64,000 bases of DNA from Streptomyces sp. H27-H1 (GTDB lineage Bacteria; Actinomycetota; Actinomycetes; Streptomycetales; Streptomycetaceae): assembly GCF_026627445.1 (NCBI RefSeq), contig NZ_JAPNLJ010000001.1, positions 1 through 64,000 of the forward strand, read 5' to 3'. The notes beneath the pieces are model-generated. The model had not been told where the DNA came from, did not search any database, and saw only the letters and a list, made by a program, of their open reading frames with translations. The first letter of the stretch is position 1, and each line of letters starts with the position of its first letter. The translations under genes were made by a program, and so were the position numbers. Positions 9,728 to 13,395 of the stretch are shown in pieces.

Positions 9728-12388
9728 TCAGGACGGGTCGCCGTACTGGAGGCCGCGTCCGTTGGTGCCGACATAGACACGCCCGAAGGTGTCGGGGTCG
9801 CCGGTGATGACGCCGCCGCCGCTGATGTTGCCCCACTGGTGGGCGTCGTCGTTGATGCGGACCCAGGTGGCTCCCTTGTCGCTGGAGCGGAAGACTCCGG
9901 TGACGTCCTTGACCGTGCCGATCAGGTACAGGGCCTGGTAGGAGGCGCCCGGCGCCGCCTTGCCGAAGCCGACGGCGGAGGCGGACTTCACCGTGGTGAG
10001 CGCGGTGAAGTTGCGGCCGCCGTCGGTCGAGTGCAGCAGTCCCTTGCCACCGCCGGAGATCCACAGGTCCCCGGCGATGCCAGGGACGGCCACGAGCCGG
10101 CCGGCGGGCAGGTTGGTGGCGCGGGCGGTGAAGCTCGCGCCGCCGTCGGTGCTGGCGTAGAGCGTGCCGCCGGCCAGTGAGTAGAAGGTCCTGGCCGAGG
10201 AGCGGTCGGCGACGACCACGGCGCCGGTGCTCAGGCCGCCGACCCTCGACCAGCTCGCCCCCTGGTCGGTCGAGCGGTACGGAGCCTGCCCCTCCGGGGT
10301 CCAGACGATGGCGGAGCCGTCCGCAGAGAGCGCGACCTGCCCGCTGTCGGAGCTGCCCACCGGCTCCGATTTGAAGCCGCTCCAGTTGCTGCCGCCGTCG
10401 GTGGAGTAGGCGCCGTCCTGCGAGCCGCCACGGCCGACGCGGACCATCATCGAGGGGTTGGACTGGGCGAAGTCGATGTCCGTACTGGTGATCATCAGCG
10501 GGTTCTTCAGCCGCCCTGCGGGCACTTTGGCCAGGGAACTGGAGGAGCTGTAGTGGAAACCGCCCAGGTCTCCCATGGAGGAAATGACGGCGGCGCCGCC
10601 GGGCGGGGCTACCGCGTCCTGCACCGCGGTCTCCTCCAGTCCTCGGGACCCCACGGTCCAGTGGCTGGTGCCGCCGTTGTCGGTGGCGCCCGCGTCCTTG
10701 CTGCGCCAGATGCCGCTTCCGGTGCCGTACAGCACGTGCCCGGAGTTGAAGGGGTCGATGGCCATGGCGGTCATCCAGTGCCCGGTGCTGGTACCGACGT
10801 AAGGGGCGGCGGAGGTGTCCCGCTTCGACTTCGAGGCCAGTGCCTTCCAGGAGGTGCCGCCGTCGGTGGTGCGGTAGATCTCGTCCTCGGGCCACCAGCG
10901 GTCGAGGGTGGTGACCATCACCGTGGACGGCTTCTGCGGGTCGACGGCCAGACCGGAGAACCCGTAACTGCCCTTGGACGGGGAGACGTTCTTCCACGCT
11001 CCGCCCGCCGGCGTGTGCTTCCACACCGAACCCGCCGTCACGCCGTTGGGGCCGACGGCGTTGGTGTACGTCAGGTACAGCGAGCCGTCACCGGAGAGCA
11101 CGCCGTGCTGCGGCATCTCGCCGGTGGGCTGACCGGATACGGCCTGCCAGGTGCTGCCGCCGTCGGTGGAGCGGTACAGGGAGGTGGACTTGTCGGCGAC
11201 ACCGGCGTAGACCGTATTGCTGCCGGCCGGGCCGTACGTCACGAAGGCGATGCCCGCACCGCTGCTCGCCCCGTCCTTGACGGGGAACGAGGAGACCTGA
11301 CTCCATGTCACGCCGTGGTCGGTGCTGCGCCACAGGCCGTTCTTGCGGGTGCCCAGCAGCAGCGTTCCGTTGTCCGCGGGGTTGATCGCCAGCCGTTCGC
11401 CCGCCCCGCGGCCGTCCTCGTTCGCGCCCAGCTTGAAAGGCAGAGCGGTGCGCTTGAAGGTGCGGCCCCGGTCGGTGGAGCGCAGAAGCTCGGCGTTGCC
11501 CGCCCAGCCGTTGGTGTAGGTGCCCGCCGCGGCGTAGAGCCGGCCGGGGTCGACGGGGTCGGTGGCCAGCGAATCGATGCCCAGCAGGTTCCAGTCCTTC
11601 TCGCCGACCCAGTCGGTGAGCGGGAGCCACTGCTCGGCTGCCGCGTCCCAGCGGTAGGCGCCGCCCATGTCGGTGCGCGCGTACAGAAGGCCCTTCTCGC
11701 GCGGGTTGAACACCAGCCCGGTGACGTAACCGCCGCCCACCACCTGGGCGTTTTTCCACACGTACGGTCCGGCCGCGGTCTGATCCGCGCCGCCGGCCCC
11801 GGCCGCCTGGGCCGGGGCCGATCTCACAAGCTTCCACTGCTGGTTGGTGCTGTGCCTGTCGGGATACTGCATGACCGTCGCACCCTGGGCCGTGGAGCCT
11901 CCGGAGACGTCCAGGACCAAGCCGCTCTTGCGGGAGGTGAAGGTGACGCCGTCGGATCCGCTCACTTCGTCGATTCGCCACTCCTGGGAGGCGGAGGAGC
12001 TGTCGGTCTGCTGCTCGGCGGCGGCCTTCTCGGCGGTCGAATCACCCGCTATGCCCAGCACTTTGCCGCTGTTGCGGTTCACCAGCTCGTAGTAGCCGTC
12101 CCTCCCGGTGGACCTCAGCCTCCACTGCTGGTTGGCGGTGTTCTGGTCGGTCCACTGCTGGATGCGGGTGCCGTCGGCGGTGGAGAAGCTGTTGACATCC
12201 AGCACCTTGCCGCTGCGCACGGAGACCAGCCGGTAGTAGGCCGCGCCGTCGACCGTCGCGGCCTGCGAATCCTCCTGCACGAACAGGAAATACGGCACGA
12301 CGATGGCGGGCACGCCGAGCAGCAGACCGGTCGCGGTCCAGCGACGGCGGTGACGTCCGCGGTTCCCGCCATTCGTGGGGTTGTTCAT
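9728..12388 (-). CDS. secreted GH74 xyloglucanase with N-terminal ricin-type lectin domain
   Basis: Extracellular endo-xyloglucanase of 886 residues. An N-terminal hydrophobic segment (about residues 17-36, after RGRHRRRW) acts as signal peptide or anchor; residues about 45-185 hold a ricin-B-like lectin module (three Q(Q/E)W repeats); the rest is a tandem seven-bladed beta-propeller of GH74 with many Asp-box motifs (STDGGSTW, TTDGGTSW, STDQGASW). The two catalytic aspartates of the family are expected in YARTDMGGAYRW and SSMGDLGGFHY. ATG 12388 is directly preceded by a run of eleven C, and GAGGAG sits 16 nt upstream, an unusually long spacing. No better start exists, and a longer GTG frame at 12478 would hide the signal peptide. 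Confidence 0.92.
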   Translation of the reverse strand: MNNPTNGGNRGRHRRRWTATGLLLGVPAIVVPYFLFVQEDSQAATVDGAAYYRLVSVRSGKVLDVNSFSTADGTRIQQWTDQNTANQQWRLRSTGRDGYYELVNRNSGKVLGIAGDSTAEKAAAEQQTDSSSASQEWRIDEVSGSDGVTFTSRKSGLVLDVSGGSTAQGATVMQYPDRHSTNQQWKLVRSAPAQAAGAGGADQTAAGPYVWKNAQVVGGGYVTGLVFNPREKGLLYARTDMGGAYRWDAAAEQWLPLTDWVGEKDWNLLGIDSLATDPVDPGRLYAAAGTYTNGWAGNAELLRSTDRGRTFKRTALPFKLGANEDGRGAGERLAINPADNGTLLLGTRKNGLWRSTDHGVTWSQVSSFPVKDGASSGAGIAFVTYGPAGSNTVYAGVADKSTSLYRSTDGGSTWQAVSGQPTGEMPQHGVLSGDGSLYLTYTNAVGPNGVTAGSVWKHTPAGGAWKNVSPSKGSYGFSGLAVDPQKPSTVMVTTLDRWWPEDEIYRTTDGGTSWKALASKSKRDTSAAPYVGTSTGHWMTAMAIDPFNSGHVLYGTGSGIWRSKDAGATDNGGTSHWTVGSRGLEETAVQDAVAPPGGAAVISSMGDLGGFHYSSSSSLAKVPAGRLKNPLMITSTDIDFAQSNPSMMVRVGRGGSQDGAYSTDGGSNWSGFKSEPVGSSDSGQVALSADGSAIVWTPEGQAPYRSTDQGASWSRVGGLSTGAVVVADRSSARTFYSLAGGTLYASTDGGASFTARATNLPAGRLVAVPGIAGDLWISGGGKGLLHSTDGGRNFTALTTVKSASAVGFGKAAPGASYQALYLIGTVKDVTGVFRSSDKGATWVRINDDAHQWGNISGGGVITGDPDTFGRVYVGTNGRGLQYGDPS

Positions 12389-12399
12389 GGGGGGGGGGG
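12389..12399 (-). repeat. homopolymeric C(11) tract between ribosome-binding site and start codon
   Basis: On the coding strand eleven consecutive C residues separate GAGGAG (12410-12405) from the ATG of the GH74 gene. Such tracts are prone to slippage, which here would alter the SD-ATG distance and not the protein; they are also prone to sequencing error. Confidence 0.85.
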
Positions 12400-12503
12400 T
12401 TGTTCTCCTCGCATACCGTTCACAAGCCAAAGGGGGATCCAGGCTCCGGATTGGCCGGATCCGACTCCTTGTGGTCACAGGCTCCGCAAAGGGTTGCCTC
12501 GAG

Positions 12504-12518: not shown

Positions 12519-12585
12519 CCGCCTCGTGGTGCGGTAGGCGCTGATCAGGAGAACTACGCCGAGCCGGGGCCGGAGGGGGTCCCAA

Positions 12586-12645
12586 TCAGGTGGCGCCCGG
12601 TCAGGTGGCGCCCGGTCAGGTGGCGCCCGGTCAGGTGGCGCCCGG
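12586..12645 (-). repeat. 4 x 15-bp tandem repeat abutting a stop codon
   Basis: Four exact copies of TCAGGTGGCGCCCGG (plus strand). The next TCA, at 12646-12648, is the TGA stop codon of the gene at 12646-13395, so on the coding strand the array begins just after the stop. Each unit itself contains a TGA in that frame, so each would act as a fresh stop after readthrough or contraction. Confidence 0.9.
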
Positions 12646-13395
12646 TCAGGGCAGCCGGGGTCGCAGCGCCGCCCAGGCGTCCGCCGCCACCGCCAGGGGA
12701 TCGCTCGCGGCGAGGTACGGCCGGGCCGGGGCCATGCAGGGAATGAGATTCTTGATGCGGCGCAGCCGCTGGATGGCGGGGCGCGGCAGCTCCCGCCAGG
12801 CGCGGGACTGCTCCGCCGCCTGGGCCGGGGTCAGCTCGAAGCCGGCCAGCACGTCCCGGCAGAGCCCGGCGGGGTCGCGGTCGGGGTCCGCGGTGTCTCC
12901 GGGGCCGAAGCTCTGGATCAAGTAGCTGCGTACGTATGGTTGTTCCTCCGGACGGCCGGCCCGGTCGAGGGCGGCCAGCGCGATCCGGCCCCAGCGCAGC
13001 CGCATCCCGTCGGGCAGGGCCTCGTCCTGCATCCTGGCGGTCGCGAGGGCGCGCAGCGGGCCCGGATGCGGCTCGTCCAGCAGCTCCGGCCCGGTGGCCA
13101 GCCACGCCTCGACCTCCACCAGGGCGTGCCCGCCGGGCGGTACGTACGTCAGCACCTGCCCCCGGGCGAGCAGCGCGACCACGGCCCCCGTGAGGTGGAC
13201 CCTGGCGGTGTGCCCGGCATCGACGGACTCCGCCACCCGCCCGTACCGCTCGATCCGCCGCAGCCCGACCCTGAGCTCCCCGGCCGCGTAGACCTGCCCG
13301 GCGCGCGCCACACCGCCGACGCACCGCACCACGCACACGCCACCCGTGGCATCGGCCGTCTCGACTGCGTACACCTGCAACTCGGCGATGGACAC
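12646..13395 (-). CDS. hypothetical protein
   Basis: A 249-residue soluble protein without signal peptide, membrane segment or motif I can name. It starts VSIAELQVYAVETADA (GTG at 13395, preceded by GGGGCAGG); its first half is beta-rich with repeated short hydrophobic strands, its second half helical with charged residues and LRRIKNLIPC near the end. Codon-position GC is normal for this genome, so it is a real gene. It is transcribed towards the GH74 gene and may share a transcript with nothing else. Confidence 0.6.
   Translation of the reverse strand: MSIAELQVYAVETADATGGVCVVRCVGGVARAGQVYAAGELRVGLRRIERYGRVAESVDAGHTARVHLTGAVVALLARGQVLTYVPPGGHALVEVEAWLATGPELLDEPHPGPLRALATARMQDEALPDGMRLRWGRIALAALDRAGRPEEQPYVRSYLIQSFGPGDTADPDRDPAGLCRDVLAGFELTPAQAAEQSRAWRELPRPAIQRLRRIKNLIPCMAPARPYLAASDPLAVAADAWAALRPRLP

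What the first reader, a model, noticed from the sequence alone, without database searches (positions are those of the whole stretch)
12386..12410. C(11) tract sets the ribosome-binding-site spacing of the GH74 gene
Eleven C between GAGGAG and ATG give a 16-nt spacer, too long for good translation. Slippage by a few bases would tune or switch expression of a secreted xyloglucanase without changing its protein, i.e. a possible phase-variable or bet-hedging control rarely described in Streptomyces.
Basis: partly seen in the sequence, partly recalled or inferred. Interest (0 to 1): 0.5.

Follow-up and report, generated by a model that had tools for sequence, protein, structure and literature searches.

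The report
Private C-run expansion before xyloglucanase gene
A run of eleven C's pushes the ribosome-binding site unusually far from the start of a secreted plant-cell-wall-degrading enzyme gene, but no relative examined has it, so it looks like a one-off copying slip (or assembly miscount) rather than a built-in expression switch.

Summary
On the minus strand GAGGAG, AACAA, C11 (12399-12389) and ATG (12388-12386) give a 16-nt spacer before a secreted RicinB-GH74 xyloglucanase. C11 is not beyond chance here: 36 of 100 dinucleotide shuffles of the window contain one. The switch interpretation gains no support from relatives. In 150 other distinct orthologue leaders the spacer C run never exceeds 7 and the AGGAG-ATG spacer is 10-12 nt in 145, 7-9 in 5; all 150 read CAAGGAG where this genome reads CGAGGAG. 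The three leaders grouping nearest have spacers of 10, 11 and 11 nt. GGAG-N2-8-C9+-RTG occurs in 7 of 392 genus genomes, against 3 matches of the reversed control. Most likely this is a private slippage expansion of a C4-C6 spacer in an actinobacterium with NucS and no detected MutS, probably lowering translation; the coding sequence shows no consistent sign of relaxed constraint. A homopolymer miscount in this draft assembly is the main rival. Within-strain variation could not be tested.

The parts
12389..12399 (-). C11 homopolymer between Shine-Dalgarno and start codon
   Evidence: read directly
12405..12410 (-). Shine-Dalgarno GAGGAG; the corresponding 7-mer is CAAGGAG in 150 of 150 other distinct orthologue leaders (AGGAG itself was required by the selection) and CGAGGAG here
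12400..12404 (-). AACAA, the non-homopolymer part of the 16-nt spacer
9728..12388 (-). secreted RicinB-GH74 xyloglucanase gene, 886 aa, ATG start
   Evidence: the start aligns with orthologues; secretion is inferred from the N-terminal sequence
12385..12414 (-). possible 9-codon upstream reading frame (ATG CGA GGA ...) that at C11 ends in TGA overlapping the GH74 ATG as ATGA; not conserved, speculative
12455..12498 (-). upstream element GGCAACC-N15-GACCAC...GGATCCGG, a candidate ECF-type promoter; its position would imply a leadered mRNA (inference)
   Evidence: GGCAACC-N15-GACNAC exact in 69 of 150 other leaders, with N13-17 in 86 of 150; single copy in own genome at up to 3 mismatches

Best explanation
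The tract is a private, probably recent replication-slippage expansion of an ordinary C-rich RBS spacer. The ancestral leader was CAAGGAG + about 11 nt ending in C4-C6 + ATG; in this genome the C run grew to 11, and the SD also changed from AAGGAG to GAGGAG. Slippage is expected because the genome has NucS and no detected MutS. The effect, by inference, is a graded loss of translation initiation for the xyloglucanase, not a programmed switch. Shown: sequence, spacer, comparative distribution, presence of NucS and no MutS_V match, no consistent sign of relaxed constraint on the coding sequence. Inferred: slippage as the mutational mechanism, the ancestral state, and the direction of the effect on translation.
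For: 150 of 150 other distinct leaders have a spacer C run of 7 or less; spacer 10-12 nt in 145, 7-9 nt in 5, window 16 nt. The window groups with L114, L111 and L112 in a tree of 17 chosen sequences (support 0.995) and of 59 (support 0.699; 0.975 for the wider group of six); their spacers are 10, 11, 11 nt with C6, C4, C3. One relative, L139, has the same AACAA followed by C6, a plausible precursor form. NucS_C best match 8.2e-43; no MutS_V match in the own genome, while the same search finds it in 11 of 14 control genomes; NucS does not repair 1-2 bp indels in M. smegmatis (PMC11551767, passages). S. lividans RBS spacing 4-9 nt (PMC8079986, passages). The window-lineage aa/syn ratio is not raised consistently: 0.94-1.58 against 1.12-2.00 on the sister side in 15 comparisons; lower than the sister's in 12 and higher in the 3 that use L118 as outgroup. 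Predicted SD accessibility is 0.41-0.43 for every tract length from 4 to 14.
Against: No same-species strain could be compared, so the tract may be polymorphic or stably long within the species. The assembly may have miscounted the homopolymer. Among 118 relatives, leaders with C6 or more do not vary more in spacer length than those with fewer C (variance 0.68, n=38, against 0.70, n=80), so slippage leaves no visible signature at shorter tract lengths. Predicted accessibility of the AUG is not flat: 0.32 at C6, 0.41 at C11, 0.44 at C13, so a longer tract might partly help. A leaderless mRNA, for which the spacer would not matter, is not excluded: 22.2% of S. avermitilis transcripts are leaderless (PMC8780764, passages). 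MutL was not searched. No expression data.
Confidence: 0.72

Rival explanations
1. Assembly or sequencing artefact: the true tract is shorter (for example C6-C8) and the length was miscounted in a draft assembly.
For: Draft of 176 contigs. Of 20 runs of 10 or more C, one (C45) ends a contig and three have N within 30 nt, so poly-C trouble exists in this assembly. All 150 other orthologue leaders are C7 or less.
Against: The tract lies inside a 367-kb contig with flanks on both sides that align to orthologues. The SD base change beside it is a substitution that homopolymer error does not explain. Sixteen of the 20 runs, this one included, have no N in the 30 nt printed on either side and do not end a contig.
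Confidence: 0.18
2. Phase-variable or bet-hedging control: slippage in the tract reversibly changes SD spacing and so xyloglucanase output.
For: The place is right and NucS-type repair is reported to leave indels. In M. tuberculosis, +1 in a 7G tract in the espR 5'UTR raises EspR translation (PMC11898584, abstract, passages and section 8).
Against: No examined relative has a spacer run above C7; the architecture recurs little above the control (7 of 392 genomes, with 3 control matches); plus or minus one base at 16 nt would be graded at most (inference); the espR effect is attributed to leader folding, whereas here predicted SD pairing is unchanged for C4-C14, though AUG pairing shifts modestly.
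Confidence: 0.07
3. Coupled mini-ORF: the ATG that abuts the SD opens a short frame (9 codons at C11) whose TGA overlaps the GH74 ATG only when the tract is C5, C8, C11 or C14 (lengths 4-15 tried), so tract length modulo 3 sets coupled, fused or out-of-frame translation.
For: Reading-frame arithmetic.
Against: Of 150 other leaders, 95 lack an abutting ATG; where present it is in frame 0, 1 or 2 in 36, 11 and 8. No AGGAG-like site is seen in the roughly 20 nt before that ATG (read; not scanned further).
Confidence: 0.03

Closest known systems
Mycobacterium tuberculosis espR 5'UTR 7G tract (PMC11898584; abstract, passages and section 8 seen)
   Same: Actinobacterial homopolymer in a 5' leader; length can change translation without changing the protein.
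   Different: There the tract lies 144 bp upstream, is proposed to act through leader folding, and is polymorphic across clinical isolates with reversions; here it is inside the SD-ATG spacer, seen in one genome, and its length does not change predicted SD pairing.
Homopolymer phase variation in Neisseria (PMC5320596, PMC5084427; search listing with start of abstract only)
   Same: Homopolymer whose slippage could change expression.
   Different: Those systems rest on recurrent tract variation; no such variation could be shown here, and the relatives examined lack the tract.
Ordinary Streptomyces Shine-Dalgarno leaders (S. lividans map, PMC8079986, passages)
   Same: AGGAG-type SD upstream of ATG.
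   Different: Spacer 16 nt against 4-9 nt reported there (counted from a hexamer, so 5-10 on my scale) and 7-12 nt in GH74 orthologues.

Membership tests
Simple-sequence phase-variable gene | Tract placed where a length change could alter expression | tested here: met
   Between SD and ATG, 16-nt spacer; effect on expression inferred
Simple-sequence phase-variable gene | Long tract maintained at the orthologous place in relatives | tested here: not met
   Maximum C7 in 150 other distinct leaders
Simple-sequence phase-variable gene | Length polymorphism among strains or within a population | not testable with these tools
   One genome per species held; no reads
Simple-sequence phase-variable gene | Repair background that leaves indels unrepaired | tested here: inconclusive
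   NucS_C present, no MutS_V match; NucS inactive on 1-2 bp indels is shown for M. smegmatis, not for Streptomyces; MutL not searched
Simple-sequence phase-variable gene | Reversible expression change | not testable with these tools
   Needs reporter assay
GH74 xyloglucanase | Homology to characterised GH74 xyloglucanases | tested here: met
   6p2o E 2.7e-186 over residues 209-885
GH74 xyloglucanase | Catalytic activity on xyloglucan and catalytic residues | not tested
   Residues not mapped

The most novel reading that the evidence does not exclude
In this species the C tract is truly hypermutable, and its length both spaces the SD and (modulo 3) decides whether a short upstream frame is coupled, fused or out of frame with the xyloglucanase, giving cell-to-cell variation in a secreted public-good enzyme in an actinobacterium whose NucS repair would not be expected to correct indels.
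Probability: 0.04. Interest if true: 0.6.

Novelty: new member of a known kind. Interest (0 to 1): 0.15.

Why it matters
If only a slippage expansion, it is a small example of leader drift in a genus where small indels are probably poorly repaired, and a caution against reading any long homopolymer as a switch. If the tract were variable, it would be a simple test case for stochastic output of a shared extracellular enzyme in Streptomyces.

Tried and rejected
An exact 26-base leader pattern found nothing in genome contigs. Rarity of the run as evidence was rejected: C11 occurs in 36 of 100 window shuffles. Change of SD pairing as the lever was rejected: SD unpaired probability 0.41-0.43 for C4-C14; AUG unpaired probability does move, 0.31-0.44. 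Translation through the tract from an upstream in-frame start was rejected: the spacer is 10, 11 or 12 nt in 26, 85 and 34 of 150 relatives, so the frame is not kept. Gene decay was rejected as far as testable: the window-branch aa/syn ratio exceeds the sister's only in the 3 of 15 comparisons with L118 as outgroup. No Rfam element was found in the leader: one match below its cut-off, on the + strand at 12571-12634. Greater spacer variance in C6+ leaders, expected if short runs slip often, was not seen.

Literature: five searches on homopolymer, phase variation, slippage and Shine-Dalgarno terms showed no title on a homopolymer between SD and start in Streptomyces; the listings were capped (15 of 16, 6 of 6, 10 of 20, 1 of 1 and 10 of 810 papers) and the library lacks most subscription journals, so this is not a claim of absence from print.

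Rows dropped: of 201 loci given, two had no tblastn hit (L224, L225), one had no AGGAG with a start (L222), duplicates were merged to 156 distinct leaders, and 5 below 70% identity over the aligned part of the first 110 aa were set aside. In one search the five below that line (L218-L221, L223) had spacers of 6-8 nt with C5-C6, and two of them (L218, L223) read CGAGGAG as the window does. Not given: L071-L090 (a partial match and GH74 homologues of about 50% identity) and L226 (own-genome paralogue region). The rule needed AGGAG in the last 25 nt, so a spacer over 20 nt would have been missed. The tree used 16 of the 80 named loci, chosen by me; one search used 58 of 80, 22 being skipped because the frame read from the match start was short or cut off by the locus end.

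Full report
Observation. The minus strand reads GAGGAG-AACAA-C11-ATG at 12410-12386, a 16-nt spacer. The ATG opens an 886-aa protein with an N-terminal ricin-B lectin part and a GH74 part matching solved xyloglucanases down to E 2.7e-186. It is the only C or G run of 8 or more in the window.

Chance. C11 appears in 36 of 100 dinucleotide shuffles of the window (mean 0.64). Runs of 8 or more are depleted: 4 overlapping matches, all in this tract, against a shuffle mean of 17.6. The assembled genome has 20 separate runs of 10 or more C (93 overlapping matches; runs printed). One of these ends a contig and three have N within the 30 nt printed, which raises a homopolymer-error caveat; the present tract is inside a 367-kb contig.

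Comparison. Leaders came from a genus draw of 392 genomes, 61 relatives including the own genome, the best 80 of 492 relatives in named genomes and a family draw of 394 genomes, with further stretches fetched. Of 201 loci analysed, 156 distinct leaders resulted, 151 of them in the orthologue group including the window (counts repeated). In the 150 others the spacer is 7, 8, 9, 10, 11 and 12 nt in 1, 1, 3, 26, 85 and 34; the window has 16. The longest C run in the spacer is 7 or less in all 150; the window has 11. The 7-mer ending in the required AGGAG is CAAGGAG in all 150; the window has CGAGGAG. Two of the five more distant leaders set aside also read CGAGGAG.

Relatedness. The window groups with L114, L111 and L112 in a tree of 17 chosen sequences (support 0.995) and of 59 sequences (support 0.699; 0.975 for a wider group of six that adds L154 and L116). 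Their spacers are 10, 11 and 11 nt with C6, C4 and C3. No closer relative was available; records very near the window's genome may be left out of the named collection.

Recurrence. The pattern GGAG-N2-8-C9+-RTG is found in 7 of 392 genus genomes, one match each, including this one; the reversed control gives 3 matches in 2 genomes. Of the other six, three precede open frames of more than 100 aa (149, 191 and at least 229 aa), three only 62, 23 and 8 aa. I see no recurring architecture.

Mechanism. The genome has a strong NucS_C match (8.2e-43; two further matches lie at or below the cut-off) and no MutS_V match. In M. smegmatis NucS does not repair 1-2 bp indels (PMC11551767, passages); extension to Streptomyces is inference. 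A spacer such as AACAACCCCCC in L139 could expand by slippage to C11. S. lividans RBS spacers range 4-9 nt, mean 6.37, counted from an RGGAGn hexamer within 20 nt of the start (PMC8079986, passages). So 16 nt should weaken initiation, but the GH74 family baseline is already about 11 nt. Predicted SD accessibility is flat across C4-C14, while AUG accessibility moves between 0.31 and 0.44 (0.32 at C6, 0.41 at C11). The coding sequence shows no consistent excess of amino-acid change on the window branch: the aa/syn ratio is below the sister's in 12 of 15 comparisons and above it in the 3 with L118 as outgroup. So the gene is apparently still used. Against slippage as a frequent process at this site: C6+ leaders do not vary more in spacer length than the rest. 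A leaderless mRNA, common in S. avermitilis (22.2%, PMC8780764, passages), would make the spacer irrelevant; the conserved SD in 150 leaders speaks against it, with the reservation that AGGAG was part of the selection rule.

Upstream. A block GGCAACC-N15-GACCAC...GGATCCGG lies at 12498-12455. GGCAACC-N15-GACNAC is exact in 69 of the 150 other leaders and with N13-17 in 86; the alignment of 90 leaders was of leaders picked partly for GGATCCGG or TCCGGC, and I viewed 25 of its rows. In the own genome it is single at up to 3 mismatches. It resembles an ECF-type promoter (my recall of the class); sigma-E targets in S. coelicolor carry GGCAAC-like -35 boxes but mostly CGTC-like -10 boxes (PMC6767563, passages), so sigma-E itself is not indicated. 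If it is the promoter, the mRNA is leadered and SD spacing matters (inference).

Verdict. A real spacing anomaly, found in one genome only, best read as a slippage expansion of a normally 10-12 nt spacer, with assembly miscount as main rival. Phase variation is unproven and comparatively disfavoured, though within-strain variation could not be tested.

Noticed in passing
window 12455-12498 (-): Upstream element GGCAACC-N15-GACCAC...GGATCCGG; GGCAACC-N13-17-GACNAC in 86 of 150 other GH74 leaders, single copy in own genome; candidate ECF promoter.
   Followed up: partly
window 12586-12650: Perfect tandem repeat, 15-bp unit TCAGGTGGCGCCCGG x4.3, about 90 bp beyond the upstream element.
   Followed up: no
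L093, L098, L100, L102: Own-genome poly-C runs of 10-45 at a contig end or within 30 nt of N: possible assembly artefacts.
   Followed up: partly
L095 about 1001-1010: C10 directly upstream of a GAGGAG Shine-Dalgarno-like sequence of another possible own-genome gene.
   Followed up: no
G000:C109:57297-59450: Second GH74 homologue in the own genome, 48% identical over residues 190-885.
   Followed up: no
leaders such as L062, L115, L127: In 42 of 150 relatives the leader holds a CTCACCCTGCAGCGCTGA-like sequence that looks like the end of another gene, and none of these 42 has the upstream element in the form GCAAC-N16-GRCNAC: a different gene neighbourhood.
   Followed up: partly
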